NCBI GenBank assembly: GCA_947629565.1
Contig: CANREG010000016.1
Span: 1-51,189, forward strand
Length of the DNA stretch: 51,189 bases
Direction of reading: 5' to 3'
Source: an uncultured Lachnospiraceae bacterium
GTDB taxonomy: Bacteria; Bacillota; Clostridia; Lachnospirales; Lachnospiraceae
Shown: piece after piece, positions 5,905 to 49,400 of the stretch
How the letters are laid out: each line of letters begins with the position of its first letter
Position numbering within the stretch: position 1 is the first letter of the stretch
Translations under genes and position numbers: made by a program
Notes under the pieces: generated by a model
Databases searched by the model: none
What the model was told of the DNA's origin: nothing
The model's input: only the letters and a program-made list of their open reading frames with translations

Positions 5905-5924
5905 TTTTTATTGATTTTTTAAAT

Positions 5925-6026
5925 ATGGCGTACCATGCAAAGGGAATGGCCAATTCCGTGCTTCTTACTGTCGGCGGCCTTGTAGCTGTTGTGGAGATAG
6001 GACTGCAGCTTCTTAAAATGATTTGA
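5925..6026 (+). other. Possible 33-residue hydrophobic peptide or gene remnant
   Basis: An ATG at 5925 opens a short frame encoding a hydrophobic segment (GMANSVLLTVGGLVAVVEIG) followed by LQLLKMI and a stop. No ribosome-binding site precedes it; the upstream bases are T/A-rich. It sits exactly at the junction between rng and the inserted three-gene block, so it may be the scrap of a gene left by the insertion rather than an expressed peptide. I cannot name a family. Confidence 0.25.
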
Positions 6027-6060
6027 GAGCGGCTGTTTCTTATACGAAGGAGAATGCTAT

Positions 6061-6543
6061 ATGAAAAATAAACGGTGGAAATATCTTTTTATACTAATGC
6101 CCTTTATCATTGGAAGCGTGTCTTATTATGTGGCAGGGGAAGATCTGAAACAGTATCTCAGCTGTGTGAAATCCAATATTTTTAACAAGGGCAGTATTGC
6201 CGTATACTGTGACGCAGACATCGATTACACCTTTGAAACCGGAGAGAAAAAGCCGGCGGTAATTTATCCCGGACGGGAATATAAGAATTATGTCGATACG
6301 CATATCATCATGCTGGACTCCGACGCCGAAAATTTTAAATTTTATGAAAAATATAAGCAGCAGATGAAGGGAACTGTGTATATATGCATTAGGGAGACGG
6401 AGTATGCGCTGATTCAGAAAAACAAAGAGATACGGTATTTTGATATTTACGGTTCCATCGCCAGACAGCTCTGGAAAGAAAATATCAGGCTGTGGGAAAG
6501 ACAGGGGGATTTTAGTTGTCATGGTATAAATTTTTTGTTATAA
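6061..6543 (+). CDS. Membrane-anchored protein with a TrkA-N-like half-Rossmann region
   Basis: A 160-residue product with one N-terminal membrane segment (about 8-25, LFILMPFIIGSVSYYV). The remainder is a mixed alpha/beta domain: GSIAVYCDAD near 44, HIIMLDSDAENF near 81, GTVYICIRE near 104, then YFDIYGSIARQLW near 127. The order (strand, acidic loop with DxxN, strand, helix, and a final Ar-LW helix) recalls the second half of TrkA-N/RCK-like Rossmann domains that occur with RyR domains in bacteria. That is inference, not certain. GAAGGAG gives a good ribosome-binding site. It heads the three-gene insert; the next gene's promoter lies inside its 3' end. Confidence 0.65.
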   Translation: MKNKRWKYLFILMPFIIGSVSYYVAGEDLKQYLSCVKSNIFNKGSIAVYCDADIDYTFETGEKKPAVIYPGREYKNYVDTHIIMLDSDAENFKFYEKYKQQMKGTVYICIRETEYALIQKNKEIRYFDIYGSIARQLWKENIRLWERQGDFSCHGINFLL

Positions 6544-6544
6544 T
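6516..6544 (+). promoter_or_regulatory. Sigma-A-type promoter for the HD-RyR / TIR pair
   Basis: TTGTCA (6516-6521), a 17-nt spacer and TATAAT (6539-6544). It is embedded in the last codons of the upstream membrane-protein gene. Predicted transcription start is about 6551, giving a ~50-nt leader to the ATG at 6602. Confidence 0.6.
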
Positions 6545-6601
6545 TTTTTGTGTTTCGACATTGACAGCATTTTATTATACGAAAGGTAAGGTGAAAGGTA
6601 T

Positions 6602-8623
6602 ATGGCTTATACTAAATTAAAGGAAATGACCGGCAGGGAAGGAATAAAGCATTATAACGAAGAGGATATCTATACATTAAAAGGCGCTGCGCTTGCATTT
6701 ATCAGGGAACGCTGTGAAAATTTGAGATTTAATGATAAAAAGAATCAGGAAGAATCTTCGGAGAATTACTTGGGAAAGAGTCTTGAGGATAATCAGATTC
6801 CCTACAATATGGAAAAGGATATAGACAGGTTATGTCTGGAAAATGCATTGAACCGCTTTTTAAAATCAGGTAGAAAAGAAGATGCATTTGACGTCTATTT
6901 TTGCTATCTGGAGATGTTTGTGGGGAATTATGCAAAGACCAGAAGAATAATAGAACTGCTGGCGGAATTTGAGGCGAATGGCAGCGCTCTTTTGATGAAA
7001 CACAGGGATCATTATTCTCATTCCGTTTATGTGTTCGCATTAGGGCTGGCAATCTATCAGACCAACGAAGGTTATCGTGAGGCTTACAACCGGTTTTATC
7101 ATTGTGACGGTTCTAAGGCAGCGGCGCATTACCTGACTTATTGGGGGCTGACGTCGCTCTTTCATGATATCGGTTATCCCTTTGAATTGCCCTATGAGCA
7201 GGTTGCCTCTTATTTTGAGGTCAATCATAAAAAGCGTGAGGGCCAGATTTATCTTGCCTATCAATCCATGGATATTCTGACAAGCTTAGAGGGAGAAAAT
7301 CTAAAAGACATATCCGAACTATATGGCCGGAAATTTAAGTCAACCAATGAATTATTTGCTTTTGTAATATATGGCTATTTAAAGGATGGCGGATATGATA
7401 TTACGGAAGGCTCTATCATGAAGGCTTTGTTAAGAAAGCCTTCGCATCCGGAAGAATTTAATTATTGTATGGATCATGCATACTTTAGCGCTAATGTGCT
7501 CTTTAAAAAATTATTTCTTCAGAAAAAAGGGGAACCGGAATCCAACCTGGAACTGAAGGAGTGTATGGATGCCCTCACCGCAATCATTATGCATAACAGT
7601 CTTTACAAGTTCTGTATTACAAATTACAAATTAGAAGAAGAAACGATTCCACTTAAGGCTGATCTGCATCCGCTGGCTTATATGCTGATGCTGTGCGATG
7701 AATTGCAGTGTTGGGACAGATGTGCATACGGAAGAGATTCCAGACTGCAGGTACATCCCGTTGACTGTGAATTTATTTTTAAGAAGAACGATGGAAACGG
7801 CATTACAGCGACATATGTGTATGATGAGGAGGAAAACGGACCGGCGATTGAGAAATATGAGCATGAGTATGAAGAATGGAAAAATCATAGCAGAAAGCGG
7901 AAACCTAAATTAAAAGCATATTCGGAAATGAAATATGGAACCTTCCAAAAGGATATCGAAAAAATTGTTGACTGCGAATGTATAGGCGGCTTGAAGGTGG
8001 ATATAAAGATATCGGCAAAAGAAAAAGATGATGAAAATATGGATTACCTGTCAAACAGCAATTTTATCGGCCTGTATAATTTTGCATTGGTTCTTCATAA
8101 CAGATGGAGCCAAGCATCAAAATGGAATACAATGACAGATGCGAAAAAGAAAAATTTTTATCTCCATAATAAAAAGAACAAGTATATTAAAGACTTTGAC
8201 AAATTATCCCTGGAATATAAATTGAGCAATATTAATCAGGCAAAGGCCTTTGCAAAATATCTGAATGAGATTGGCTGCTTTTATACAATGAATATTGTTA
8301 ATTTTAAAATGGTAAACAGTTTCACAGAAGACGAGCTTAAAATAATAGGACCTTTAGAGCATCAGCGATGGTTGCAGGAGCGCTATGATATGGGTTGGAT
8401 ACATGGCAACACTACAGATAGGGAGGGTGATCGGGTACATCCAGACCTGATAGAAGACTTGTCTGTAGGAGAAACGGGTGTTGTTATTTCCAGGGAACAG
8501 GCAAAAGAAAACTATATGCGCCTGAACAAAGAAGAACAGGATAAGGATACCGATCCAATGGAGTGTATGCTCGCCATGCTTAAGATGTTCGATGGACTCA
8601 GAATATACAGATTGAGAAATTAA
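6602..8623 (+). CDS. HD-domain phosphohydrolase with C-terminal RyR-like domain
   Basis: A 673-residue cytoplasmic protein. The HD region is split: histidines in HRDHYSHS (134-140), the HD pair at H188-D189 in LFHDIGYPFELP, another His in AIIMHN (331) and an Asp in MLCDELQCWDR (366), together the metal-ligand set expected of an HD phosphohydrolase. Residues 585-672 match the layout of bacterial RyR domains: EHQRWLQERYDMGWIHG, then HPDL, then LNKEEQDKD and a final LRIYRL, the last part mirroring the 'L-EEE-KD ... I-R' ending. RyR domains are thought to bind nucleotide-type ligands in bacteria. The likely role is ligand-gated hydrolysis or signal turnover alongside the TIR partner (inference). 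It is 14 nt from the TIR gene, on the same transcript. Confidence 0.75.
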   Translation: MAYTKLKEMTGREGIKHYNEEDIYTLKGAALAFIRERCENLRFNDKKNQEESSENYLGKSLEDNQIPYNMEKDIDRLCLENALNRFLKSGRKEDAFDVYFCYLEMFVGNYAKTRRIIELLAEFEANGSALLMKHRDHYSHSVYVFALGLAIYQTNEGYREAYNRFYHCDGSKAAAHYLTYWGLTSLFHDIGYPFELPYEQVASYFEVNHKKREGQIYLAYQSMDILTSLEGENLKDISELYGRKFKSTNELFAFVIYGYLKDGGYDITEGSIMKALLRKPSHPEEFNYCMDHAYFSANVLFKKLFLQKKGEPESNLELKECMDALTAIIMHNSLYKFCITNYKLEEETIPLKADLHPLAYMLMLCDELQCWDRCAYGRDSRLQVHPVDCEFIFKKNDGNGITATYVYDEEENGPAIEKYEHEYEEWKNHSRKRKPKLKAYSEMKYGTFQKDIEKIVDCECIGGLKVDIKISAKEKDDENMDYLSNSNFIGLYNFALVLHNRWSQASKWNTMTDAKKKNFYLHNKKNKYIKDFDKLSLEYKLSNINQAKAFAKYLNEIGCFYTMNIVNFKMVNSFTEDELKIIGPLEHQRWLQERYDMGWIHGNTTDREGDRVHPDLIEDLSVGETGVVISREQAKENYMRLNKEEQDKDTDPMECMLAMLKMFDGLRIYRLRN

Positions 8624-8637
8624 GGAGAAAGAGAAAA

Positions 8638-9981
8638 ATGGGATTGACACCAGAACAGAAGAAAGAAAGAGCAAAAAGTCTTGAAAGGTTGAAGATAACG
8701 ACATATCAAGATACAGATGAGTTTGAAAATAGTTTAGGCTATGTCTTTATCAGCTATAAAAGTGATAATTGGAAAAAAGTGTTTGAAGAAACGGTTCTTA
8801 AGTTACAGGATCAATATTCATTAAGGGTATATTCAGACAAACAGTTTGAGGAAAGCAATCGTTATTGGCTTCATAATATGGAAAAAAACATAAAATTTTC
8901 ATCTGCTGTTATGGTATTCATTAGTAAAGAATATTTGACGAGTTATGCAACATTTATAGAATTATTGGAGGCAATTAAATTTAACAAAGAAATTATCCCA
9001 GTCAAACTTGAAGACAAGGATTATTTTGGAGAATTGAAAAAGAATCGTAAGTTAGAAGACCAACCTGTTAGAATGGATCCAAGTGAGGCGGATAAACTAA
9101 GAAAATTAATTCAAAATCAAGATAATTCTGATTTTGCGAAAGTAATGACAAACATATGCAATGATTATTTGGAAGATGTTGGAGGCGAAAAATTTTCAGT
9201 TATGTCTCTGGTCGAAGCATTTGAAAAAATATTGAAATTCGGAGAATTTCAGTATAATGTTGTTTCACCCGATTCAGTTGATTCCTTATTTAAGACAATA
9301 CTGGATGCATGCGAAAGGAATACAGAACCGGAATTAAGAGATGTTATCGTAAAAGAAGATGAGCAGACAGAAAAACCGGTTGCGGAGGAGAAACATACTG
9401 AAAAACCAGACAATAGCGCGCATACAAAACAGGATGCAAAATTAGACAACAGCGCACCTGCAAAACAGGTTACTGCCGTGACGGAAGAGACGGAACCGAT
9501 ATGGCCTTATGAATTGGCAGGCGATGCACGGGATCGTGCTTATGGAATATACTGGAATGAATTAAGGCAACAGATTAATAAAAAGGAAATCCGGCCTGGC
9601 ATGAGTCCTGCTAAAGGTGAGAATAAATTTGACTGGTTCAGCATGATGAATAAAGGAGGCAGGATTTCTATTGAGTGCCTGATGCGTAAGACTCAGCAGA
9701 TGAATCAGTTTCTTGTGACTTATAGTAAAAAACGCATAGAAGAAACAGAGGAAGACAAAAAATTGTTTGCCGAGCTTGAAAAGCATAAAACGGATATTGA
9801 ACAAAAGTTAGAAGTTTTTGGGGAATGTCAATGGTCTTCAAGAGAAAAATCCGGCAATGTTAAGGTAGTTAGATCTATTGAGAATAGAACCATCGAGGAA
9901 CAGATGGAATGGTATTATGAGACAAGCATTGCTATATATGATGCTGTTAAGGATTATATCGGCGATTATCTGAACTTGTAA
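8638..9981 (+). CDS. TIR-domain protein with C-terminal DUF4268-like domain
   Basis: A 447-residue protein. Residues about 33-130 form a TIR domain: strand A/box 1 is YVFISYKSDN, the strand D region AVMVFISKEYL, and E108 in ATFIELLEAIKF occupies the place of the NADase catalytic glutamate. A charged Pro/Lys/Glu linker (about 240-285) contains a short duplication (DNSAHTKQ / DNSAPAKQ). Residues about 300-443 (IYWNEL near 304, the W/F-rich DWFSMM, IEQKLEVFGECQW, final EWYYETSIAIYDAVKDYI) resemble DUF4268, a domain found at the ends of restriction- and defence-type proteins. Known TIR effectors consume NAD+, so this is a plausible toxic effector. GGAGAAAGAG precedes the ATG. Base composition is clearly AT-richer than the flanking ribosomal genes. 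Confidence 0.78.
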   Translation: MGLTPEQKKERAKSLERLKITTYQDTDEFENSLGYVFISYKSDNWKKVFEETVLKLQDQYSLRVYSDKQFEESNRYWLHNMEKNIKFSSAVMVFISKEYLTSYATFIELLEAIKFNKEIIPVKLEDKDYFGELKKNRKLEDQPVRMDPSEADKLRKLIQNQDNSDFAKVMTNICNDYLEDVGGEKFSVMSLVEAFEKILKFGEFQYNVVSPDSVDSLFKTILDACERNTEPELRDVIVKEDEQTEKPVAEEKHTEKPDNSAHTKQDAKLDNSAPAKQVTAVTEETEPIWPYELAGDARDRAYGIYWNELRQQINKKEIRPGMSPAKGENKFDWFSMMNKGGRISIECLMRKTQQMNQFLVTYSKKRIEETEEDKKLFAELEKHKTDIEQKLEVFGECQWSSREKSGNVKVVRSIENRTIEEQMEWYYETSIAIYDAVKDYIGDYLNL

Positions 9982-10011
9982 TGCCGGAATCTGATGGTTG
10001 ATAAAAAATGT

Positions 10012-16127: not shown

Positions 16128-16739
16128 TTAGAACGTGCGGAACAGGCCGATTACCTTTCCCAATATGGACACATCATCTACAATAATCGGCTCCATATAA
16201 TCATTCTCCGGCTGAAGACGAAAATGCCCGTCTTCTTTGAAAAAACGCTTGACAGTGGCGCTGTCCTCAATCAGGGCAACGACAATCTCACTGTTTCTGG
16301 CAGTGGGCTGTTCCTCTACAAGAATTAAATCCCCGTCAAAGATTCCCGCATTAATCATACTGTCGCCTTTTACCTTCAGCATAAAGGTATTCTTATTATG
16401 GAGATATTCCGGTGGAACCGGAAAATAGCCGTCAATATTCTCCACCGCCAATATGGGCTGGCCGGCAGTCACCTGTCCCACAATGGGAACATTCACAAGC
16501 TCTCTTCTCGCTAAGCCGAACATATCGTCCAAAATCTCAATGGTTCTTGGCTTGGTGGGATCTCTGCGGATATAACCGTTCTTCTCTAATGTCTCTAAAT
16601 GGGAGTGGACGGAAGAAGTGGACTTTAACTTTACAGCCTCACAAATCTCCCGTACAGAGGGCGGATATCCCTTTTGTAAAATCGTATCCTTAATAAAATT
16701 CAAAATCTCCTGTTGCTTTGCGCTGATCTTTCCCGGCAT
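16128..16739 (-). CDS. lexA: LexA repressor
   Basis: A 203-residue SOS repressor and self-cleaving protease. The winged-helix DNA-binding domain spans 1-65 ([20 protein letters not shown]). The cleavage site is A92-G93 in VTAGQP, with catalytic S127 in KGDSM and K164 in ATVKRFF. It is divergent from a yneA-like gene, and three SOS-box-like sites lie between them, so autoregulation and control of the neighbour are expected. It ends facing the hypothetical gene, with a 59-nt gap that shows no clear terminator. Confidence 0.97.
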
Positions 16740-16854
16740 AGGCGTACATCTCCTTTTCCCTTATATTCTCTGCGTGTCTGTAAAACAACACCGTTCATAA
16801 GATATAAGATAACTTTATATGGATTGGATATATCCAAATAGAAACTCTTTTTTT

Positions 16855-16883
16855 ATGATACCATAAAATGTCTCAAAAAGCAA
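16855..16883 (-). promoter_or_regulatory. lexA: lexA promoter
   Basis: Reading on the minus strand: TTGCTT (16883-16878), a 17-nt spacer and TATCAT (16860-16855). One SOS box lies 11 bp upstream of the -35. Confidence 0.55.
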
Positions 16884-16893
16884 ACATTTATTC

Positions 16894-16907
16894 CGAACAA
16901 ATTTTCG
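16894..16907. promoter_or_regulatory. SOS (LexA) box 1
   Basis: CGAACAAATTTTCG fits the Gram-positive consensus CGAACRNRYGTTYG at 13 of 14 positions. It lies upstream of the -35 elements of both divergent promoters. Confidence 0.75.
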
Positions 16908-16915
16908 AGAAAGTA

Positions 16916-16944
16916 TTGACACAAGAACAAATGTTTGCTATTAT
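16916..16944 (+). promoter_or_regulatory. Promoter of the yneA-like gene
   Basis: TTGACA (16916-16921), a 17-nt spacer and TATTAT (16939-16944), with an extended -10 TG at 16936-16937. SOS box 2 fills the spacer, so LexA binding would block RNA polymerase. Confidence 0.8.
16924..16937. promoter_or_regulatory. SOS (LexA) box 2
   Basis: AGAACAAATGTTTG matches the CGAACRNRYGTTYG consensus at 13 of 14 positions. It sits between the -35 and -10 of the yneA-like promoter. Confidence 0.85.
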
Positions 16945-16952
16945 ACTAAAAA

Positions 16953-16966
16953 CGAACAGATATTCG
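16953..16966. promoter_or_regulatory. SOS (LexA) box 3
   Basis: CGAACAGATATTCG matches the consensus at 13 of 14 positions. It lies just downstream of the predicted transcription start of the yneA-like gene, 24 nt before its ATG. Confidence 0.8.
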
Positions 16967-16989
16967 ATTGGATGTAAGGAGGTATCATT

Positions 16990-17295
16990 ATGAAGTTTAA
17001 TGTAATTAACCGTAATAATATTATGTTAATCATTGTGGGAATTTTAATTATTGTTTCCTTTATAATTGGGCATATGACGTCGGTACAGGCGGATGAATCC
17101 CGCTCCTATGATAAGTCTTTTACCACTATTACAATAGAAGAGGGGACCACTTTAACGGATATTGCAATGGAATATGCTGTATCTGAGGCAGATTATAACG
17201 ATTATATAGCTGAGGTGAAGGAGATTAATAATCTGAATCAGGATACCATTCATGCCGGTTGCTATCTGCTTATTCCGGTATACAGGGAATACTAA
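16990..17295 (+). CDS. YneA-like SOS-induced LysM cell-division suppressor
   Basis: A 101-residue protein with an N-terminal membrane segment (about 11-30, NIMLIIVGILIIVSFIIGHM) followed by a LysM-like domain (TITIEEGTTLTDIAMEY ... INNLNQDTIHAGCYLLIPV). Size, layout, divergence from lexA and the SOS boxes match YneA of Bacillus, which delays septation during DNA damage from outside the membrane. AGGAGG precedes the ATG. Sequence identity to YneA was not computed. Confidence 0.85.
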   Translation: MKFNVINRNNIMLIIVGILIIVSFIIGHMTSVQADESRSYDKSFTTITIEEGTTLTDIAMEYAVSEADYNDYIAEVKEINNLNQDTIHAGCYLLIPVYREY

Positions 17296-17337
17296 TGCAT
17301 TTTATCTGCTGCACAAGCGCATTGCAGCCTGTTATGG

Positions 17338-17370
17338 TTGGGACGGCAAAGATGGTAAATGCCGTCCCAA
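17338..17370 (+). terminator. Strong stem-loop after the yneA-like gene
   Basis: TTGGGACGGCA (17338-17348) and TGCCGTCCCAA (17360-17370) form a perfect 11-bp stem with an 11-nt loop. A T-rich stretch follows only after about 10 nt, so termination may be imperfect. The rest of the 207-nt gap to the adhesin gene holds that gene's promoter and otherwise AT-rich sequence. Confidence 0.6.
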
Positions 17371-17422
17371 TCGTGCATATTAGATTATTTTTCTAATAAT
17401 TACACTTTTCTAAAATTCTATC

Positions 17423-17450
17423 TTGACAAGAATATATTTATATGTAATAA
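17423..17450 (+). promoter_or_regulatory. Promoter of the surface-protein/sortase pair
   Basis: TTGACA (17423-17428), a 16-nt spacer and TAATAA (17445-17450). It lies about 50 nt before the start of the surface protein gene. Confidence 0.55.
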
Positions 17451-17502
17451 TCAATATACTCTAAATTTCTTCATCATACATAATGTCTTGGAAAGGACAA
17501 TT

Positions 17503-20500
17503 ATGTTTCATATGAATAATCTACACAGAATACTACACTATAGTTTTGCATTTTTATTAATTTTTTTCTTCATGGTATTTTGTTCCGGAGAAAAGGTATA
17601 TGCTGCAATCAACATTGATCACTATGCGTATAAGAATATTAAGAATAATTTACCTGATGATTATAAGAAAGACCAATACTTATATAATTCGGGAGATTAT
17701 GCTTATATTTCCTTTGCAACATATAATGGCAGCGATTATAAGACATCCGTAAAGAGGACAGAAGGGCAGAATGATTATCTGTACTGCATGGATTATTCCA
17801 AACATATTGATTTTGGGAAGGAATATTCCGTTAAGAATACCCTGTTCAATAATACTTTACGCGCCAGACTGGCCATTGCATATTATTGCGGGGCTTCCAC
17901 CTGGAAAGGGCTTGCAAACAGTCAGTTCAGCACAGGCAACACAATACTTGATTACTATATGACACAGTTAGTAATTCATGCGCTCATATATGAATATGGC
18001 GATGATAAAGCCAATTACGGTATTGATTATTCCAAAATTGCCTACAAGGATAACACAGCCACATTGAAAAAATGTACAGACGCATTTTTGGAATATTGTC
18101 GCAATGCTGCCATATATGCAGAAACAGCAGACTTTACTAAATTTAACTTTAATTTTCTCCCACCGGATACCTATGATATGTATTTATCCGGTGATGCCGT
18201 TACGACACCTTATATTAATTGTCAGATTGATGCAAACAATTCTACTGTTAATACATTCGCCAGAAGTGTATCAGGCACAGGAATCGCTCCTGAAGCAATT
18301 TCATTAGAGCATGATGCCACCAGATATGATTCTGCCTGTAGGATGTATCTGCCTGTGTCCGGTATAGAAGGGTTGGCACCTGGGTACTATACTGTTACAT
18401 TATCAGAAACTGTTAATTTCAACCGTTATCTTGCAGGAGCGTGGCAGAGTACAGATGCCAGTCATGCCTCACAGGAAATTGGCGGATTGCTGACGGACAT
18501 TTCTTCTGCCGGTGATTCAATATCATTTGGATTTCTTGTAGGGAATGTGATACTTAGGAAAAAAGATAGCATGACAGGGGAAAACATTCCTGACGCTACG
18601 TTCAGCCTGCAGCAATATGACAGTACAACCGGGCAATATGTATATTACAAACCGCTTACTTACAATGCAGCAACCAAACAGTATGAGAGTGGCAATATAT
18701 ACAAATCTGTCAATAACACCAACGGTTTTTTCCGTATTGTCGAAGAGACGCCGGGAAATCATTATATAAACGACTGGGACGGCGCATATTTTCAGTTGAC
18801 AAACGCAACCTGCGCCTTTGAATTTGATGTTGAAAACGCCCCTATATTGGGAAAACTTTCCATCAAGAAAACCGGAGAAAAACTTTCTTTTTCCGACTCA
18901 CAATTTACAACGGAACAGGAACTGCCGCTTTCCGGTGTTAAATTTGGGTTATATGCCAAAGAAAACGTTACTTTAAATGATAAGATATTCTATTCCAAGG
19001 ATCAAAAAATTGCTGACTTAACAACGGATTCTTCCGGTCATATAGAAGCAAACGATTTGTTACCCGGAGAATATTATTTCAAAGAAGAAGAGACACATCC
19101 GCTGTATACAATTGATTCGCAAACATATTCTTTTACAATCAAAAGAGAAGAATCCGGGGAGTATAGTACAGTCGATTTTGAACTTAAGAACTATTTAAAA
19201 CCTTGTAATTTGCAGATATTTAAATATTATTATGACAATACGGATCACAAACAGGAAAAGAAATTACCATTGCAGGGCGCCCGTTTCGGATTATATGCAG
19301 CGGCAGACATTAAAAATATCAATGGAGAAATTGTGCTTGCAAAGGATTCTCTGATTAAAGAGGCAGTTTCCGACGCAAATGGCGCAATTCAATTTAATGA
19401 TTTGCCTTACTGCGACTATTATCTTAAGGAATTAGAAGCCCCCGAAGGATACATTATTAGTGATGGCGTTGTAGAGATTTCCAAAGATGAATTTTGGTAT
19501 AAACAAGAGACAAAATCTTTTTTTGCTGAAAAAGAGATTCTCAATGAGAAACAAAATTTTATCATACGGATACGGAAGAATGGAGAAATCTTTTCTGGGA
19601 CATGTTCGAATACTACAGATTATGGGGAATATATCAGCTATGAATTGCAGCAGCAAAGCCTGTCTAATGTTGAATTTTCATTGTATCGCAAGGAAGATAA
19701 TACCTTTATTTCCAAAGCCGTAACCGATGAAAACGGCGTCGCTGAATTTAAGGATGTCAAATCCGGAAATTACTATGTTATAGAGACGGCTGCACCTGAA
19801 GCATACCGGATGAACACGGATAAGATTTATTTTGAATGTGGTATTGAGAGCACCAGTTATAATCCATTAAAACCACCTGTGTTGGAAGCTTCCATGGACA
19901 ATGAATTGTGTAATTGCCAGCTTAGCCTATCTAAGGTAGGAGAGCAGGCAAAAGCAAAAGGCAAGCAATTAATTTACAAACAGGTTCCTCTTGAAGGTAT
20001 TGTTTTTGGTATTTATCAGGGATTTGAATATACATTTCCTACCGGTGAAAAGCTCCCGTCTGATACCTGCGTCGGTTATCTTGTTACAGATGTCAATGGC
20101 ATAGGAAGCCTGACAACCAAACTTCCTGTTGGCAATTATTATGTGAAGGAATTAAAAACGAATGCAGGGTATGATATCGATCCTAATGCACATCCCTTTG
20201 AGATAAGCGCTAATAAGAATCAGGATATTACGATCCGGGCAGACCAGGGCACGCCTTTTATCAATCAACTGTCCAAGTCCTCTGTCAAGATCATCAAAAC
20301 TGACGCCAACACGGGAAAGCGGTTAAAAGGTGTCGAATTTACTTTATATAACGATAAGGATGAGCCAATCGGCACTTATAAAACGGATAAAAAGGGAATT
20401 ATACTGGTAGACAACCTTCCATATGGTAAGTATTATTTTATTGAGACAAAATGCAGGAACGGATATTATTCAAGCAATGATAAATATCGTTTTGAACTCG

Positions 20501-20676
20501 TGTCTGGTGATACCAGGATTTTAAATATCACCAATAATCCAATGCTGCAATTAGGATTTTCCGAATATTATAAAGAGGGTATTGTCTTATGCTTCATTTT
20601 AATTGTTGGCCTGTTTCGGATATTATATGGGCGGCATGGGCTGATTTTAAAAAGACTTAAGAAGAAATCGCATTAA
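17503..20676 (+). CDS. Thioester-domain surface adhesin with six SpaA/Cna-B repeats
   Basis: A 1057-residue secreted protein. The signal peptide is at 1-35 (hydrophobic FAFLLIFFFMVFC, cleavage after VYA). A thioester domain follows: C95 in YLYCMDYSK and Q155 in MTQLVIHALIY fit the Cys-Gln pair of TQxA-type covalent adhesins. From about 345 to 1010 come six Cna-B/SpaA domains, each with a strand Lys (SIKK, SVKIIK) and an E-box (YYFKEEETHP, YYLKELEAPEGY, YYVIETAAPEAY, YYVKELKTNAGY, YYFIETKCRNGY). A C-terminal hydrophobic helix and basic tail (LKRLKKKSH) follow, but I see no LPxTG-type motif. It is the tip-adhesin type of pilus or surface protein. The start at 17503 follows GGAAAGG; a longer opening at 17359 is rejected because it would hide the signal peptide. 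Confidence 0.85.
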   Translation: MFHMNNLHRILHYSFAFLLIFFFMVFCSGEKVYAAINIDHYAYKNIKNNLPDDYKKDQYLYNSGDYAYISFATYNGSDYKTSVKRTEGQNDYLYCMDYSKHIDFGKEYSVKNTLFNNTLRARLAIAYYCGASTWKGLANSQFSTGNTILDYYMTQLVIHALIYEYGDDKANYGIDYSKIAYKDNTATLKKCTDAFLEYCRNAAIYAETADFTKFNFNFLPPDTYDMYLSGDAVTTPYINCQIDANNSTVNTFARSVSGTGIAPEAISLEHDATRYDSACRMYLPVSGIEGLAPGYYTVTLSETVNFNRYLAGAWQSTDASHASQEIGGLLTDISSAGDSISFGFLVGNVILRKKDSMTGENIPDATFSLQQYDSTTGQYVYYKPLTYNAATKQYESGNIYKSVNNTNGFFRIVEETPGNHYINDWDGAYFQLTNATCAFEFDVENAPILGKLSIKKTGEKLSFSDSQFTTEQELPLSGVKFGLYAKENVTLNDKIFYSKDQKIADLTTDSSGHIEANDLLPGEYYFKEEETHPLYTIDSQTYSFTIKREESGEYSTVDFELKNYLKPCNLQIFKYYYDNTDHKQEKKLPLQGARFGLYAAADIKNINGEIVLAKDSLIKEAVSDANGAIQFNDLPYCDYYLKELEAPEGYIISDGVVEISKDEFWYKQETKSFFAEKEILNEKQNFIIRIRKNGEIFSGTCSNTTDYGEYISYELQQQSLSNVEFSLYRKEDNTFISKAVTDENGVAEFKDVKSGNYYVIETAAPEAYRMNTDKIYFECGIESTSYNPLKPPVLEASMDNELCNCQLSLSKVGEQAKAKGKQLIYKQVPLEGIVFGIYQGFEYTFPTGEKLPSDTCVGYLVTDVNGIGSLTTKLPVGNYYVKELKTNAGYDIDPNAHPFEISANKNQDITIRADQGTPFINQLSKSSVKIIKTDANTGKRLKGVEFTLYNDKDEPIGTYKTDKKGIILVDNLPYGKYYFIETKCRNGYYSSNDKYRFELVSGDTRILNITNNPMLQLGFSEYYKEGIVLCFILIVGLFRILYGRHGLILKRLKKKSH

Positions 20677-20693
20677 GGGATTATACGACGAAT

Positions 20694-21368
20694 ATGGGTA
20701 AACATTTTTATCTTAAAAAAGCAGGGCTCGTTGTATGTTTCATAGTAATATGCATACTGTTTTTGTATAGCTTGTATAAGTATATGAATGTATACAACAT
20801 AGAATATAATGAGCAGCTTCAAATTCAAATGATGGAACAGAATTTGTTTCCGGATATTTTAGATATACAAATTCCGTATGACAGCCATTATATATCCGCA
20901 GCAGATTATGATACAGAGGCAATCCATGAAACAAAAGTTTCGGCCGCATCCTCTAATTCAAATCACGTATGGCTTGGCGACTGTATTTTATCCATACCTA
21001 AGATTAATTTAAATAAGGTTGTATATACAGGAACCGAACGATTGGAGCATTTAAAGGATTATGGACTAGCCACGGCGGCAGATACCATGAAATATGAAAA
21101 TGGAGGGAATTATATTATATGCGGACATGCTTCAAGACTATATGGACATTCCCTAAACAGAATTAAGGAATTGGACAAAGAAGATACCATTTATATAAAA
21201 ACGAAGAATTCCAAAGACTGTTACAGGGTAACCAAGGTAAGCTATGAAAATATGAATGAAACCAGTAAATATTGCAGCCAGACGAGTCAAAGACAAATTA
21301 CCATAATTTCCTGTGCAAAATATGTATCGAAGGAAAGCTATATTGTAATTACGGCCATCCCTGAATAA
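20694..21368 (+). CDS. Sortase family protein lacking the usual active-site arginine
   Basis: A 224-residue protein with an N-terminal membrane anchor (about 10-30) and a sortase domain. Catalytic His is H145 in YIICGHASRLYGHSL and Cys is C207 in ITIISCAKY. Where sortases carry Arg before the last strand (R-x-V-I/V), this protein has S215 in SKESYIVITAI. No Arg occurs after Cys207. It follows the adhesin by 17 nt, so it should be its partner enzyme. It could be an active variant with a displaced arginine or have lost transpeptidase activity. It most resembles class B/D-like short sortases. Confidence 0.8.
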   Translation: MGKHFYLKKAGLVVCFIVICILFLYSLYKYMNVYNIEYNEQLQIQMMEQNLFPDILDIQIPYDSHYISAADYDTEAIHETKVSAASSNSNHVWLGDCILSIPKINLNKVVYTGTERLEHLKDYGLATAADTMKYENGGNYIICGHASRLYGHSLNRIKELDKEDTIYIKTKNSKDCYRVTKVSYENMNETSKYCSQTSQRQITIISCAKYVSKESYIVITAIPE

Positions 21369-21377
21369 GGGGTGGCC
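21353..21377 (+). terminator. Stem-loop enclosing the sortase stop codon
   Basis: GGCCATCCC (21353-21361) pairs with GGGGTGGCC (21369-21377), nine pairs with one G-U; the 7-nt loop contains the TAA stop. TTCCTTTT follows after 4 nt. It is probably the operon terminator. Confidence 0.5.
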
Positions 21378-21511
21378 GGATTCCTTTTCATACCGGCACA
21401 GAGGTTAATAAAACCTATGTGTTGTCACGGAACGAAAAGAGAAGATAGTGCTTAAAAGTTTTCCAGTTAGAAATCCAATTATTCGCAAAACCCAAGTTTA
21501 ACGAAAAAAAC

Positions 21512-41133: not shown

Positions 41134-43137
41134 TTAATCCTGAATCCGCTTAAACTTGTGTTCTAACTCCACTTTGGTCAGGGCAATCATTGTCGGTCTG
41201 CCATGCGGGCAGTTATAGGGATTATCGAGGGAAAGCATTTCGTCAATCAACCGGTCTGCCTCCATGGTCGTAATCTCCGTATTTCCCTTAATGGCCGCTT
41301 TGCAGGCCATGCCGGACAATTTCTCCACAAAAAAGTCCAAGCTGATTTTTCCCCGCTCCTCAGTCAGCGCATTCAACAGTTCGTCAAATAAAAGCTGCGG
41401 TTCCACGCCCATAATATCGTCCGGCACTGCCCGCACCACAATGGAATCATCTCCAAAATCCTCAATGTCAAAACCGGTCTGGGAAAATAATTCCATATGC
41501 TCTATCACCGTATTGTGTTCGACGCTGTCTAAATGCAGTACCTTTGCAGGAAGAAGCTGCTGGGATAATACCTGTTTTTTTGAAAGCTGCCGCATCAGCC
41601 GTTCAAACATCACCTTTTCATGGGCCGCATGCTGGTCCACAATATATAGCTTGTCCTCATACTCAATCAGCCAGTAGGTCTTAAATACCTGACCGATTAG
41701 ACGGTGTTTTTTTCTGGCGTTCTCGGACAAAAACTGCTCTACCGGCATGGTAAGCTGTTCCGGTTCGGAAGGCGCACCGGGTGTCTCTACAGACTTCGCA
41801 AGCGGTTCCGGTTTGGCATTGCCTGTTTCGGAGGGCGCATCAGGTGTCTCTACGGACTTCGTAAGATGTTCCGGTTCGGAAGGCGTACCGGATGTTTTTA
41901 CGGAAATACTCTGCTTGTCCGGAAAGGTAGTTGCTTTCTCCGGAAAAACCTTCTGTCTGTCTGCCTCCTTAACGGCTGCGGGTGGTTCATTTTTCCTCTG
42001 CTCCTCCTGATGCTTTACAATTCCCTGCTGATACCGCATGGCTCTGGCTTCCTTCTCAAAAGGCTCCGGTACATGGCTGGTACTGCTTCTCTGGCGTTCA
42101 ATGGTGATTGCCCGTTCTTCTTCGGCGCTTTTCAGCGAAACATCCTGAATCATTTCCTCGCTCAATAAAGCCTGACGGACGCTGTCTTTTACAAAATCAA
42201 ATAACTGCTCTCCGTCCGCATACTTAAATTCCATTTTCGTGGGGTGCACATTGACATCTAACTTGTTGCTGTCCAAGGTAAAATGCAGCGCCGTAAAGGG
42301 AAATTTATGCACCATAATAAAGGATTTGTAGCCCTCTTCAATGGCCTTGGTTACAATCTGATTCCGGATAGAACGGCCGTTGACAAAATAATGTTCGAAG
42401 CTGCGGTTTCCTTTGAATATATAGGACTTGCCGATATAGCCCTCTACTGCCATGCCGCTTAAAGAACGCTTGACCGGCAACAGGTTGGCAGACACATCTT
42501 TCCCATAAATATGATAAATCACATCTTGTAGCCTGCCATTTCCTGAGGTGGCAATTTTATTACTGCCGTTGATAATGTATTTAAAAGAGACCTCCGGGTG
42601 GGACAGGGCTAACTTTGTTATCAGCTCGGTTACATATCCCCCTTCTGTCATAGCGGTTTTTAAAAATTTTTTTCTGGCGGGTACATTGTAAAACAGATTG
42701 CGCACGATAACCGTAGTTCCAGCAGGAGCCCCGATTTCCTCCCTTGCAACCTCCTTGCTGCCATGGATTTCATACCGGATTCCCGTAAGCTCATGGGCTG
42801 TCTTTGTAATACACTCCACCTGGGCAACCGCCGCAATGCTGGCTAAAGCCTCGCCCCGGAAACCTAAGGAGCGCACGCTTAACAAATCTTCTATGGTCAT
42901 AATCTTGCTGGTGGCATGGCGGATAAATGCGGCAGGCACTTCTTCTTTTGCAATGCCTGCCCCGTTATCCGTAATCCGGATAAAGGAGATTCCGCCGTCC
43001 TTAATCTCTACGGTAACGGCTGTAGCTCCGGCGTCAATGGCATTTTCCACTAACTCCTTTACTACGGAGGAAGGCCGTTCGACAACCTCGCCAGCGGCAA
43101 TCTTATTTATCGTTGCGTGGTCTAAAATCTTTATCAT
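41134..43137 (-). CDS. mutL: DNA mismatch repair protein MutL
   Basis: A 667-residue MutL. GHKL ATPase motifs: ELVENAIDAGA, DNGAGI and GFRGEALASI. The C-terminal domain has the endonuclease metal motif DQHAAHEKVMFE (D501-E512), so it should nick DNA, as in species without MutH, and ends with NCPHGRPTM. Linker (about 330-465) is long and contains three copies of an SVETPxAPSEPE-like unit at 412-464. AGGAG precedes the ATG. Confidence 0.96.
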   Translation of the reverse strand: MIKILDHATINKIAAGEVVERPSSVVKELVENAIDAGATAVTVEIKDGGISFIRITDNGAGIAKEEVPAAFIRHATSKIMTIEDLLSVRSLGFRGEALASIAAVAQVECITKTAHELTGIRYEIHGSKEVAREEIGAPAGTTVIVRNLFYNVPARKKFLKTAMTEGGYVTELITKLALSHPEVSFKYIINGSNKIATSGNGRLQDVIYHIYGKDVSANLLPVKRSLSGMAVEGYIGKSYIFKGNRSFEHYFVNGRSIRNQIVTKAIEEGYKSFIMVHKFPFTALHFTLDSNKLDVNVHPTKMEFKYADGEQLFDFVKDSVRQALLSEEMIQDVSLKSAEEERAITIERQRSSTSHVPEPFEKEARAMRYQQGIVKHQEEQRKNEPPAAVKEADRQKVFPEKATTFPDKQSISVKTSGTPSEPEHLTKSVETPDAPSETGNAKPEPLAKSVETPGAPSEPEQLTMPVEQFLSENARKKHRLIGQVFKTYWLIEYEDKLYIVDQHAAHEKVMFERLMRQLSKKQVLSQQLLPAKVLHLDSVEHNTVIEHMELFSQTGFDIEDFGDDSIVVRAVPDDIMGVEPQLLFDELLNALTEERGKISLDFFVEKLSGMACKAAIKGNTEITTMEADRLIDEMLSLDNPYNCPHGRPTMIALTKVELEHKFKRIQD
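41746..41904 (-). repeat. mutL: Three imperfect repeats in the MutL linker
   Basis: Units SVKTSGTPSEPEHLTK, SVETPDAPSETGN... and SVETPGAPSEPEQLTM (residues 412-427, 428-448, 449-464). Confidence 0.8.
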
Positions 43138-43202
43138 TTGTCAACTCCTATTATCATCAGTTATCTATCTGAAATCAAATACATCTGCTTTATCACACCA
43201 TA

Positions 43203-43754
43203 TTAATTAGAAAGCGCTTTATAAAATGAATAATCTACGAAACCACTCATGTTTTCTAATGCCCCTTTTTCTAGTTCCTTAATCATCAGACAGTCCGGGT
43301 GGGGCAAATGAATCTTAGGCCCCGCTTCAATTCCAAACTTATAGCTTGGCTGGAAACCACGACAATTATAATTTTTAGGGTCACCTTCAACGAGGACAGC
43401 TTTGAATCCGAGATTTTTTGCTTTTTCAAATCCATATTCCAATAGTTCTTTTGAAATATGCTGCCTTTGTAGTTCTGTTTTCACTGCAACAGGTGTCAAT
43501 ATTAACAGTTGATTCTCATACCTTCCCTCGATATGAAAACGGGAAAACATGGCGTAGCCGATGATTTCATCCTTTTCATTTACCATTATCAGTTCCAGTT
43601 CAGGGATATAGTATTTTTTAGAGCGTATTTCCTCAACTAATTGCCTGACAGTTTTTCCCTCCTCAAGATTATCCCATTCAGTGAAAACGGATTCAACCAA
43701 ATCCAGCGAGGCAGTCAGATATTTATTTTCCATAGCCTTTATAATTCTTTCCAT
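43203..43754 (-). CDS. GNAT family N-acetyltransferase
   Basis: A 183-residue protein resembling YhbS-type GNATs. The acetyl-CoA region reads ILTPVAVKTELQRQHISKEL near residue 85, followed by GFKAVLVEGDPKNYNCRGFQ, which also fits the family. Substrate unknown. TAAAAGGAGA precedes the ATG. It is the first of a run of small accessory genes pointing away from mutL's start. Confidence 0.82.
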   Translation of the reverse strand: MERIIKAMENKYLTASLDLVESVFTEWDNLEEGKTVRQLVEEIRSKKYYIPELELIMVNEKDEIIGYAMFSRFHIEGRYENQLLILTPVAVKTELQRQHISKELLEYGFEKAKNLGFKAVLVEGDPKNYNCRGFQPSYKFGIEAGPKIHLPHPDCLMIKELEKGALENMSGFVDYSFYKALSN

Positions 43755-43789
43755 TTGCTATCTCCTTTTAAGAATTATTGAATACATTT

Positions 43790-44200
43790 TTACTCGATAA
43801 CCAATTTCGCATAGGTTTCTCCGTCCTCTTCGCAATCCTTGTTGTATACATGTTTTCCTATGATACTTCGCAATTCTTTAATATCGTCTATTTCCTCAGA
43901 GGCAAATTCAAGATAACATACTTTTGAATCGGAAACATTTAAATCTTCATAAAAATCAGAAATATAGCAACAAAATTCATCTAATAAATCTTCTAAAGGA
44001 TACTGGGAAATATCATCGGCATAATTTCCTTCTTCATACTCCGGCTCCTGTTCAAACGATAAGGAGGTTACATATAGCACTTCCTCTCCTTCCTTATATT
44101 CATAGATTTCCGGTTCGACTTCGTTATATTTTCGTTTTTTAAACAGGGAAAGCCCTTTCTTTAAATATTTTTCTGCCTTATAGTTTTTAATATTTTTCAT
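43790..44200 (-). CDS. Hypothetical acidic protein
   Basis: I do not recognise a family. The 136-residue product has a basic N-terminus (KNIKNYKAEKYLKKGLSLFKKRK) and then a strongly acidic remainder (many Glu/Asp/Tyr, for example EYEEGNYADDISQYPLEDLL). No membrane segment. GGAGG precedes ATG 44200; the frame opens 66 nt earlier but lacks a ribosome-binding site. It could be an immunity- or antitoxin-like small protein, but nothing proves it. Confidence 0.6.
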   Translation of the reverse strand: MKNIKNYKAEKYLKKGLSLFKKRKYNEVEPEIYEYKEGEEVLYVTSLSFEQEPEYEEGNYADDISQYPLEDLLDEFCCYISDFYEDLNVSDSKVCYLEFASEEIDDIKELRSIIGKHVYNKDCEEDGETYAKLVIE

Positions 44201-44255
44201 TCGATTCCTCCTGGTATTTTTAATATAAATCTTTTGAATAATACATTTTTTCTCC

Positions 44256-44783
44256 TCACTTTTCAAGTAAAAACACAGTTAAATCTTCATAAGGATTGGT
44301 TTTAGCCAGCCCCAATGCCGTAACCTGTCCGGAAAATGCGCCGAACTGGTGCTGCAACACAGAAAATGCCTCCTTCATTTCCTCCTTGGAGAGCTTCTTT
44401 CCCATCGTAGCATGGGGAAACCATGAAAAGGGCTGATAATACCGGCTTATGGTGATATCCTGAATCTGTATCAGACTGTCATAAATCTGTTGGGACAGGG
44501 ATTGCAGATATACATTCAGCACAGGCGCTAAATAGATAACGGAGGGGAAAAAAGTACCGACGCTTACCCATTGTAAAGTACCTACAGATAATCTCTCCGC
44601 TGCTTTTTCCAATAACCGGACTGCCTCTGCTTCCCGATTGGTTTCAAAGGCAGACAGGGTAATGTGGGGCGGAACATGGTTATCCGTCATGTAGGTATTC
44701 CCGGTTTTTGCCGCAAGCTGATTTATATATTGCGTGAGCCTGTTGTTGGTGTTATCGTCAAAATACGCAGATATCAGATACAT
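44256..44783 (-). CDS. 2H phosphoesterase / 2'-5' RNA ligase family protein
   Basis: A 175-residue protein carrying the two HxT motifs of 2H phosphoesterases: H40-I-T42 in PPHITLSAF and H124-A-T126 in FPHATMGKK. Family members open cyclic phosphates or 2'-5' linkages of nucleotides and RNA; the actual substrate is unknown. ATG 44783 follows GGAAGAAG; a TTG 18 nt upstream also opens the frame. Confidence 0.85.
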   Translation of the reverse strand: MYLISAYFDDNTNNRLTQYINQLAAKTGNTYMTDNHVPPHITLSAFETNREAEAVRLLEKAAERLSVGTLQWVSVGTFFPSVIYLAPVLNVYLQSLSQQIYDSLIQIQDITISRYYQPFSWFPHATMGKKLSKEEMKEAFSVLQHQFGAFSGQVTALGLAKTNPYEDLTVFLLEK

Positions 44784-44841
44784 ATTTTCTTCTTCCTTCA
44801 AAAAATATTAGCTAAACTAAAACTTTCCTTTCGCTTTACAT

Positions 44842-45315
44842 TTACAGACGACAAAGCATAATATATTCTTCCTCGTTTTCATCCACAATTTCAAATCCGG
44901 TTTTAAGATACATTCTTACAGCATAATTTGCCTTTTGAACTGCAAGGGACGCTTGTTTATATCCCCTATCCTTCAAAATGCAGAGCATTTCTTTCATTAA
45001 AGCAGTGCCTATGCCTAAGCCGCGATATTCTTTGTACAGGGAAATTGCAAAGGAGGGCGTGTTGTCATCAATGTGCCCGTAATCGTCCATAATGCGTACC
45101 CAAACGGCACCGACAACTTTTTTACCCACTTCTGCAAGCAAGCCTATATCATCTTTTTTCTGCCCAAATCCGGATATATATACCTGTAATTCCGGCTGGT
45201 TGATAATCGTTTTTGGAGGCATAACCATTCCTTCCGGCACAAAAATAGCTTCGTACAGAAAATCTTCAAGTAAACCGTATTCTTCCTTTGATATTTTCCT
45301 GATTGTATACTCCAT
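44842..45315 (-). CDS. GNAT family N-acetyltransferase
   Basis: A 157-residue GNAT. The acetyl-CoA loop is YRGLGIGTALMKEML, preceded by the strand PSFAISLYKE and followed by ASLAVQKANYAVRMYLKTGF, the usual C-terminal motif. Substrate unknown. AGGAGGAGG precedes the ATG. Confidence 0.87.
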   Translation of the reverse strand: MEYTIRKISKEEYGLLEDFLYEAIFVPEGMVMPPKTIINQPELQVYISGFGQKKDDIGLLAEVGKKVVGAVWVRIMDDYGHIDDNTPSFAISLYKEYRGLGIGTALMKEMLCILKDRGYKQASLAVQKANYAVRMYLKTGFEIVDENEEEYIMLCRL

Positions 45316-45359
45316 AACCGCCTCCTCCTACTGTTCTTTCAAAATAAACTATTGACACG

Positions 45360-45764
45360 TTACCATATCTCGCCCTTCTTAAATTTTTCTGCTTCTTTAA
45401 TTTTTATAAGCAATCCAGCACAATAATACCATACTACTATTACTAAATATGTCTTTTCTTCTGAACAGCGCTCTACTACTCCTGTTTTAATAAAAACATA
45501 CCAATCGTATAGCAAAAAAATAATCTCAGGTATAAATATCGCATAAGAAAAAACACCTAATAGACTCATTCTATTTCGTTCTTTTGCACTTGTTGTTGTT
45601 CCCCAAGTAGTTTTATGTGCAATTAGCATTGTAGCTAATTTTCTATTTTTAATGGTAATTTTTTTACTGAATGTTTTAAATGTCATAGAATGTATTCTGC
45701 ATGCCCCTATAAAACATATTAATGTTATTACTGTCATATATATCATGGCTAAAAAATCGCACAT
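45360..45764 (-). CDS. Hypothetical membrane protein
   Basis: I do not recognise a family. The 134-residue product has about three hydrophobic segments (MIYMTVITLICFIGACRI, VFSYAIFIPEIIFLLYDWYVF, YLVIVVWYYCAGLLI) with a basic cytoplasmic loop between the first two. GGGAGG precedes the ATG. It is one of the small accessory genes and base composition is AT-rich. Confidence 0.6.
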   Translation of the reverse strand: MCDFLAMIYMTVITLICFIGACRIHSMTFKTFSKKITIKNRKLATMLIAHKTTWGTTTSAKERNRMSLLGVFSYAIFIPEIIFLLYDWYVFIKTGVVERCSEEKTYLVIVVWYYCAGLLIKIKEAEKFKKGEIW

Positions 45765-45805
45765 TACATACCTCCCGATTCCAATTAGTTCACTTCTTTA
45801 CACAT

Positions 45806-46312
45806 TCAATTGTCTTCAAAACATAGTTGTATATTGTCTATTACCATCTCTTTGCACTTCCATTCTTCGCCCATAACATAATACTTTTCTGTCGTATCAA
45901 GAGCTACATCTTTAAAACCGACGGATTTATAACAGTAATAAGCCGGAAGGTTATTCTCAAAAACACCCAATGATGCTTTTTTCGCTCCATATATTCCAAA
46001 TGCGTATTTCAGTCCTAACCGGAGCATAGTTTTTCCACAGCCTTTTCCTCTCTTGTGAGGGGCTACAATAACAAATCCAAAGCGTAGTTCATCCAATGAT
46101 TCATCTGGAGTTCTTAGCGTAAAAAAGCCAATATTCCCTGTTTCATCAAATGCTGTAAGCGGCATCAGAGAGGTCACAAAACTAAATTCACTTTGTGTTA
46201 TGGGATAATTGCCAAGTACACCTGCCGACCATTGATAAAATGCTTTTTCATCTTGACACCACGATAATATTGTATCTGCATCTGAATCTTTATATGGTCT
46301 TATTCTTATCAT
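45806..46312 (-). CDS. GNAT family N-acetyltransferase
   Basis: A 168-residue RimJ/RimL-like GNAT. MIRIRPYKDSDADTILSW is the typical start, and APHKRGKGCGKTMLRLGL is the acetyl-CoA loop, followed by ASLGVFENNLPAYYCYKSVG. GAGG precedes ATG 46312; the frame runs 39 nt further upstream into the intergenic repeat and is not used. Confidence 0.87.
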   Translation of the reverse strand: MIRIRPYKDSDADTILSWCQDEKAFYQWSAGVLGNYPITQSEFSFVTSLMPLTAFDETGNIGFFTLRTPDESLDELRFGFVIVAPHKRGKGCGKTMLRLGLKYAFGIYGAKKASLGVFENNLPAYYCYKSVGFKDVALDTTEKYYVMGEEWKCKEMVIDNIQLCFEDN

Positions 46313-46320
46313 TTGCTTTG

Positions 46321-46373
46321 CCTCGCTAAATCCTGATTTTTTTCTCCGCAACTTCCTGTCAAATAAGAATTTA
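46321..46373. repeat. Intergenic direct repeat, copy 1
   Basis: About 53 bp shared with 46703-46755 (core TCTCCGCAACTTCCYGTCAA, and AAATCYTGATTTTTT). It begins within two bases of the TfoX-like stop and ends at the ribosome-binding region of the GNAT gene. Confidence 0.8.
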
Positions 46374-46374
46374 C

Positions 46375-46695
46375 CTATTTCTTCTTTTTCGGTTTTGGTG
46401 TTGGCAATTCCTCATACACGGCGTTGAATAAACCTGTCAAAAACTCTCTGTTATCAACTTCGTCCACCAACAACATTTCTTTTGCTCCCTCATAGGGTAA
46501 TTCATACGAGGCTGTTGGCATATAGTTGATTGCTGCTTTTACTGGTTTTACAAGCAACCTGTCATCATAGATACCGCCTACGATTTTGCCACGATAATAG
46601 ATGATAAATTCTCCCATCATAGCCCGATATGTAATTTCATCCAATTCGGATAATTGCTCTAAAATAAAATCTAAATATTCTTTACTTGACGCCAT
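46375..46695 (-). CDS. TfoX/Sxy N-terminal domain protein
   Basis: A 106-residue protein matching the TfoX N-terminal domain (MMGEFIIYYRGKIVGGIYDD, LLVKPVKAA, YELPYEGAKEMLLVDEVDN), with a Lys-rich tail (PKPKKKK). In gamma-proteobacteria TfoX governs competence genes; in Clostridia small TfoX-domain proteins have unknown roles. The gene stands alone between two copies of a direct repeat, like a cassette. Confidence 0.85.
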   Translation of the reverse strand: MASSKEYLDFILEQLSELDEITYRAMMGEFIIYYRGKIVGGIYDDRLLVKPVKAAINYMPTASYELPYEGAKEMLLVDEVDNREFLTGLFNAVYEELPTPKPKKKK

Positions 46696-46702
46696 TATTC
46701 CA

Positions 46703-47129: not shown

Positions 47130-47238
47130 TCATTTATCCCCCTTTGTAAACACCGATTGCAAGTGCTTTTTTATCGATTTCAACAGGTTCATTTTAGCAG
47201 ATGATTTTAAGTGTTGCAAGGCATAAGGACATTGAGAT

Positions 47239-49394: not shown

Positions 49395-49400
49395 TCACGA

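What the first reader, a model, noticed from the sequence alone, without database searches (positions are those of the whole stretch)
5905..10011. Foreign three-gene TIR / HD-RyR / membrane module inserted in the ribosomal-protein neighbourhood
Seen: the conserved order rng-rplU is interrupted by three AT-rich genes with no housekeeping counterpart, ending 30 nt before the rplU promoter. The set combines a TIR domain (known NAD+-consuming effector), an HD phosphohydrolase with a RyR-like ligand-binding domain, and a small membrane protein with a possible TrkA-N-like fold. Known: TIR and RyR domains occur in bacterial immune and signalling systems. Inference: the RyR/HD protein senses or degrades a nucleotide signal and controls the TIR effector. 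I know of no named system with this combination.
Basis: partly seen in the sequence, partly recalled or inferred. Interest (0 to 1): 0.8.

Follow-up and report, generated by a model that had tools for sequence, protein, structure and literature searches.

The report
TIR and HD-RyR signalling defence cassette
A bacterium carries, slotted between two housekeeping genes, a small gene cassette that looks like a transferable anti-virus alarm: one enzyme that probably makes a chemical signal from NAD, and one protein that probably reads that signal through a domain shared with animal calcium channels.

Summary
Between rng and rplU sits a 38% GC insert (flanks 46-50%) encoding a truncated membrane protein (A), an HD-RyR protein (B) and a TIR-DUF4268 protein (C). 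Four same-genus genomes have rng-rplU only about 140-190 nt apart; the nearest relative carries an unrelated gene there. The operative unit is probably B+C: A lacks the second membrane helix and RyR domain of its longer relatives. B's HD site and four RyR residues, equivalent to those by which a phage RyR protein binds 2'/3'cADPR, are present in 20 of 20 orthologs. A TIR gene lies near B in 12 of 21 loci (about 0.5% expected per locus), with exchangeable partners: RyR membrane protein, SLOG/LRR proteins, or PD-(D/E)XK nuclease. Best reading: a Thoeris-like TIR nucleotide-signalling defence cassette in which RyR is the receptor and HD-RyR a signal-gated phosphohydrolase. Chemistry and defence are inferred, not shown. 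The main rival: HD-RyR is the signal's off-switch. New variant of a known kind; a 2025 preprint on TIR systems could not be read and may overlap.

The parts
6061..6543 (+). A: 160-aa truncated relative of the 454-aa membrane-Rossmann-RyR protein of L004 (one hydrophobic helix kept; second helix and C-terminal RyR missing); probable remnant
   Evidence: 43% identity over 104 aa, alignment; homologs in the loci annotated were longer proteins
6516..6544 (+). promoter-like site (TTGTCA-17-TATAAT, TG before the second hexamer) inside the 3' end of A, 57 nt before B
   Evidence: 11 of 12 consensus matches, best of 14 found where shuffles give 14.2; 10 or 11 of 12 also within 200 nt upstream of B in 4 of 13 other loci looked at; consensus match only
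6602..8623 (+). B: 673-aa protein, HD phosphohydrolase-like domain (about 66-475) plus two RyR repeats (about 494-559 and 566-671)
   Evidence: Pfam RyR 2.4e-5; HD residues and RyR H587, W590, H613, D649 in 20 of 20 orthologs; Pfam HD in 6 of 13 members scanned, not in the window's own; PDE-like fold
8638..9981 (+). C: 447-aa TIR domain (about 36-138, E108) plus C-terminal DUF4268-like domain (305-441)
   Evidence: TIR_2 1.3e-11, DUF4268 1.2e-5, PADLOC candidate PDC-S11 8.7e-9, alignments
5937..10002 (.). extent of the stretch not shared with the nearest relative G020 (shared sequence on both sides)

Best explanation
A horizontally acquired, Thoeris-like immune cassette. C (TIR) is sensor and signal synthase: a phage cue perceived through its variable C-terminal part activates the TIR, which converts NAD+ into an ADP-ribose-type nucleotide, most likely a cyclic ADPR isomer (inferred). 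B is the receiver: its RyR module binds that nucleotide (inferred from conserved pocket residues) and switches on the HD phosphohydrolase, which attacks a nucleotide pool and stops phage growth (inferred). In sister cassettes a RyR-bearing membrane protein, a SLOG-like membrane protein with LRR proteins, or nucleases stand in the effector position. In this genome the membrane partner has decayed to the fragment A, leaving a two-gene B-C unit with its own promoter-like site.
For: TIR with the catalytic-type Glu in 12 of 12 B-linked TIR proteins (the L012 alignment is unsure there). RyR residues matching RyDEP H75/W78/H100/D117 by motif and spacing (PMC13232231, parts 1-2 of 6 read) in 20 of 20 B orthologs, and the HxxW pair in 7 of 7 RyR membrane proteins aligned. 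TIR gene in the flanks of 12 of 21 B orthologs; background 54 TIR_2 matches in 60 genomes, about 0.5% per locus. TIR presence changes at least 6 times on B's tree. In L034, L046 and L047 (B plus TIR) no other RyR protein was found nearby. RyR membrane proteins lie directly beside a TIR gene in 7 of 18 further loci that I chose from the hits. AlwI-type restriction-modification genes directly precede the HD-RyR of L044; AbiL/RloB-type genes lie about 6 kb from B in L004; the L010 nuclease matches candidate PDC-S26. HD site and fold.
Confidence: 0.5

Rival explanations
1. HD-RyR is the off-switch: RyR captures the TIR-made nucleotide and the PDE-like HD domain (or RyR itself, RyDEP-like) hydrolyses it, setting a threshold as ring nucleases do; the killers are the RyR membrane, SLOG or nuclease partners, or the TIR's own NADase.
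For: B is the constant part while partners vary; the HD fold resembles cyclic-nucleotide phosphodiesterases; phage RyR proteins degrade or sequester TIR signals (PMC13232231).
Against: The window and the B-TIR units L034, L046, L047 show no other RyR receptor nearby. Most tested phage RyR homologs only bind. Solitary B copies need a signal made elsewhere or another role.
Confidence: 0.27
2. C alone is the effector (an NAD-consuming TIR with its own phage sensor), and B and A are accessory or coincidental neighbours.
For: SpbK, a single TIR protein, is an NADase that protects by abortive infection (PMC12847820, start of abstract and passages seen).
Against: TIR is near B in 12 of 21 loci in differing neighbourhoods, with a 4-nt overlap of the two ORFs in L047 and 14 nt between them in the window.
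Confidence: 0.12
3. Anti-defence cargo: HD-RyR is spread by mobile elements to destroy host TIR signals, and the neighbouring TIR is a former target.
For: A solitary B on an IMG/VR contig (L028) beside a relaxase-like ORF (named by eye), and B+TIR on a phage-labelled scaffold (L034).
Against: B is encoded together with TIR and effector-like genes in most TIR-bearing loci, in L044 right after restriction-modification genes, which is host-side context.
Confidence: 0.06

Closest known systems
Thoeris (TIR ThsB + effector ThsA)
   Same: TIR protein with a conserved catalytic-type Glu, paired in one operon with a protein bearing a putative ADPR-type nucleotide-binding domain; membrane effector in sister loci
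   Different: No SIR2-SLOG, TM-macro or caspase-like effector (types I, II, IV as described in PMC12847820 and PMC11204291, passages seen); receptor RyR, output HD. The effectors of types III, V and VI are not known to me and could overlap
RyDEP phage RyR-domain proteins (PMC13232231)
   Same: RyR/R12 family; the four ligand-contacting residues conserved by motif and spacing
   Different: RyDEP is a phage anti-Thoeris protein; here RyR is fused to HD or to a membrane protein and encoded beside the TIR gene
Clover (HD dNTPase CloA + nucleotidyltransferase CloB; PMC12265719, abstract and opening text seen)
   Same: HD phosphohydrolase under control of a nucleotide signal made by a partner enzyme
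   Different: TIR instead of a nucleotidyltransferase; RyR module; best structural matches are PDEs, not dGTPases
Class I cyclic-nucleotide phosphodiesterases (animal PDE catalytic domains)
   Different: 7-11% identity; RyR in place of the usual regulatory domains; bacterial

Membership tests
Thoeris | TIR (ThsB-like) protein with catalytic Glu | tested here: met
   TIR_2 1.3e-11; Glu in 12 of 12 B-linked TIR proteins
Thoeris | effector of type I, II or IV (SIR2-SLOG, TM-macro, caspase-like) | tested here: not met
   no such Pfam, NCBIfam or PADLOC match to A, B or C at E up to 1
Thoeris | effector of type III, V or VI | not tested
   their make-up was in no text I could read; the 2025 preprint is not held
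Thoeris | TIR makes an ADPR-type signal that activates the partner | not testable with these tools
   needs biochemistry
RyR domain family (PF02026) | profile match and pocket residues H, W, H, D | tested here: met
   B 24.9 bits against a cut-off of 27.4, E 2.4e-5; residues in 20 of 20 orthologs; profile of the membrane relatives matches an RyR1 chimera at 4.1e-13; 4 of 8 further membrane relatives over the cut-off
HD phosphohydrolase superfamily | H...HD...H...H...D metal site | tested here: met
   H140, H188-D189, H292, H331, D366 in 20 of 20 orthologs and 5 of 5 distant homologs; Pfam HD in 6 of 13 members at E up to 5, best 0.0028
Class I cyclic nucleotide PDE | PDE catalytic fold standing clear of other helical folds | tested here: inconclusive
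RyDEP glycosidase | hydrolysis of 2'/3'cADPR | not testable with these tools
   residues conserved, activity unknown
Clover | partner Pol-beta nucleotidyltransferase | tested here: not met
   no nucleotidyltransferase profile match in A, B or C
Ion channel with TrkA-N/RCK domain (A's full-length relatives) | pore helices plus Rossmann domain | tested here: inconclusive
   two long N-terminal helices and a Rossmann-like region in a model of mean pLDDT 43; hydropathy gives two or more segments in L011 and L012, one in L004 and L009, none in L003; no pore motif looked for

The most novel reading that the evidence does not exclude
Bacterial RyR domains are natural host receptors for TIR-made cyclic ADP-ribose signals: RyR membrane proteins are signal-gated effectors and HD-RyR is a dedicated effector or phosphodiesterase for the same signal, a bacterial counterpart of a cADPR-to-ryanodine-receptor axis.
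Probability: 0.35. Interest if true: 0.87.

Novelty: new variant of a known kind. Interest (0 to 1): 0.7.

Why it matters
Phage RyR proteins were reported in 2026 to bind and destroy TIR signals (PMC13232231). This locus and its relatives suggest the host side: RyR-bearing receivers encoded beside TIR enzymes. That would give bacterial RyR domains a function, add an HD phosphohydrolase branch to TIR immunity, and make the old question of whether cADPR-type molecules act directly on RyR domains testable in a small bacterial system.

Tried and rejected
B and C alone found no solved structure by sequence (A was not tried alone). PADLOC and NCBIfam named no system; the one hit is PDC-S11 for C's C-terminal part. 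B was not found among the plasmids held and was found in one unannotated phage-labelled record. Foldseek alone gave no match at E 0.001 for either model, and no meaningful viral match. The whole-length TIR alignment found no solved structure at E 0.01, probably because its C-termini diverge. No Rfam match at gathering level and no tRNA in the window, so no tRNA-type integration site was seen. The tree label test does not show clustering of TIR presence; I use it only to say that gains or losses were repeated.

Considered and rejected: A as an intact small effector; ordinary core genes (B in 2 of 26 genus genomes); assembly artefact of the whole insert (B, C and their pairing recur elsewhere), though a misassembly inside A is not excluded. 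The search that found no full-length membrane relative in the window's genome (E 1e-8) did not report A itself, so truncated copies would be missed. The VIA list for A's relatives does not tell which Rossmann family they belong to.

[quoted passage not shown] not held), and the 2015 survey of nucleotide-centric systems (recalled) is not held. That I saw no HD-RyR/TIR system in print rests on paper searches only, of which I read one paper in part and three by abstract or passages.

Dropped before counting: duplicates L002 (in L013), L035 (holds L006), L036 (= L012) (checked); L001 and L018 (the window); the short loci L014-L017 and L019-L022, whose places were refetched with longer flanks. L045 and L049 match only in the RyR part. 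The five distant homologs L043, L044, L046, L047, L048 are counted apart from the 21. L042 is a broken fragment and L029 is interrupted; both are in the 21 as loci without TIR, L042 is not in the 20 aligned.

Full report
OBSERVATION. The window holds three same-strand ORFs between rng and rplU: A 6061-6543, B 6602-8623, C 8638-9981. The insert is 37.7% GC against 49.6% and 46.3% in flanking stretches. Pfam gives TIR_2 (1.3e-11) and DUF4268 (1.2e-5, just under its cut-off) for C and RyR (2.4e-5, two stretches, just under its cut-off) for B; A has no significant match.

INSERTION. rng was found in 20 of 26 genus genomes. Besides the window, rplU was seen after rng in 7: 137, 158, 175 and 190 nt after the rng match in G008, G015, G019, G016; 774, 1206 and 2045 nt in G009, G018, G020. 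In G002, G005, G007 and G014 a phosphopentomutase-like ORF (by eye) follows rng; 8 end in contig breaks or were not resolved. G020, 95% identical over rng, shares the first 32 bases after rng and the region from 10003 on, which includes the rplU promoter match, but has an unrelated 607-aa ORF between. The site is variable and the cassette accessory. B occurs in 2 of 26 genus genomes, the window's and G022.

PROTEIN C. The Glu at 108 is present in 12 of 12 B-linked TIR proteins (the L012 alignment is unsure there). The C-terminal parts differ among the 9 compared in full, as expected of sensors. Other TIR partners carry LRR, WD40, TPR or Sel1 repeats.

RECURRENCE. B relatives came from genome contigs (10 loci), 12 of 397 family genomes (9 of them orthologs, the others distant or RyR-only), 4 of 392 order genomes (3 of these in the family set), 5 of 398 phylum genomes (the window's own, three distant and one RyR-only), one IMG/VR contig and one phage-labelled scaffold. 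Without duplicates there are 21 orthologous loci. A TIR gene lies in the DNA held around 12: window, L004, L009-L013, L034, L037-L039, L041. My TIR profile was seeded from seven of these. Pfam TIR_2 matches above its cut-off the window, L009, L010, L012, L013, L034, L039 and the L037, L038 and L041 loci; L004 is weak (1e-4, under the cut-off), and L011 was not scanned with Pfam (45% identical to C's first 270 residues). Background: 54 TIR_2 matches at E 1e-5 in 60 genomes, roughly 165 Mb, about 0.5% per 16-kb locus (the binomial 1e-22 ignores relatedness). Without TIR: L003, L005, L006, L007, L008, L028, L029 (interrupted), L040 and L042 (fragment); L003, L005, L029 and L042 lie on short contigs or at a contig end. 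In whole genomes, G293, G113, G186 and G1066 have no TIR_2 match, and G197 (L006) has two elsewhere. Of five distant homologs, L044, L046 and L047 have a TIR and L043 and L048 a DUF4062 protein nearby. Partners vary: RyR membrane protein in L003, L004, L009, L011, L012, L037 and L044; PD-(D/E)XK nuclease in L010 (Pfam) and homologs in L013, L038; DUF2779 in L004 and a homolog in L013; in L039 LRR proteins with a SLOG-like membrane protein (under Pfam's cut-offs), in L041 LRR proteins with a similar ORF seen by eye. On the tree TIR presence needs 9 changes, at least 6 forced. The window's B is closest to L003 (62%), not to its genus-mate G022 (51%), which suggests transfer.

INDEPENDENT DIRECTION. 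The RyR membrane profile matches in 44 of 299 family genomes. I fetched 18 of these loci, chosen from the upper part of the list, not at random. 7 (L131, L134, L135, L136, L138, L140, L141) have a TIR gene next door; 11 do not, one of which (L139) has one two genes away; no HD-RyR was seen within four genes. So TIR beside a RyR receiver is wider than HD-RyR.

DEFENCE CONTEXT. Restriction-modification genes (AlwI type) directly precede L044's HD-RyR; AbiL/RloB-type genes lie about 6 kb before B in L004; a ParE-like toxin lies about 2 kb before B in L037; the L010 nuclease matches PADLOC candidate PDC-S26. These were chosen neighbours: 8 of the 10 proteins given to PADLOC matched something, which is not a rate.

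MECHANISM. Shown: domain content, conserved residues, recurrence, variable site. Inferred: TIR makes an ADPR-type signal; RyR binds it; HD acts. I prefer the signal-gated effector (0.5) because B is the only RyR protein seen in the B-TIR units and in the window; the eraser reading (0.27) explains why B is constant while partners vary.

NOVELTY. It works like Thoeris but lacks the effectors of types I, II and IV; types III, V and VI were not described in what I could read. HD-RyR with TIR was not found in the papers I could search; a 2025 TIR-systems preprint could not be read. I file it as a new variant of a known kind.

Noticed in passing
window 5925-6026 (+): A 33-residue hydrophobic ORF at the point where similarity to G020 ends; remnant or junction sequence.
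   Followed up: no
L080 (G020) 434-2257: The nearest relative has an unrelated 607-aa ORF with a signal-like N-terminus at the same rng-rplU site, so the site looks like a variable spot.
   Followed up: partly
L039:6602-15327 and L041:7986-16661: Larger HD-RyR cassettes with TIR, leucine-rich-repeat proteins and a SLOG-like membrane protein (Pfam YAcAr and DUF4231 in L039, under cut-off; by eye in L041).
   Followed up: partly
L131, L134, L135, L136, L138, L140, L141: TIR plus RyR membrane protein pairs without HD-RyR nearby, the TIR in several fused to WD40, LRR or TPR sensors.
   Followed up: partly
L043:4285-8025 and L048:5830-6408: Distant HD-RyR homologs near DUF4062 proteins (one with AAA and TPR) instead of a TIR gene.
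   Followed up: no
G000:C18:9805-10137: A second TIR protein in the window's own genome; TIR ORFs of about 290-360 aa occur in many genus members.
   Followed up: no
window 16500-21500 and 43000-51000: Two further low-GC stretches (35-40%) that were not examined.
   Followed up: no
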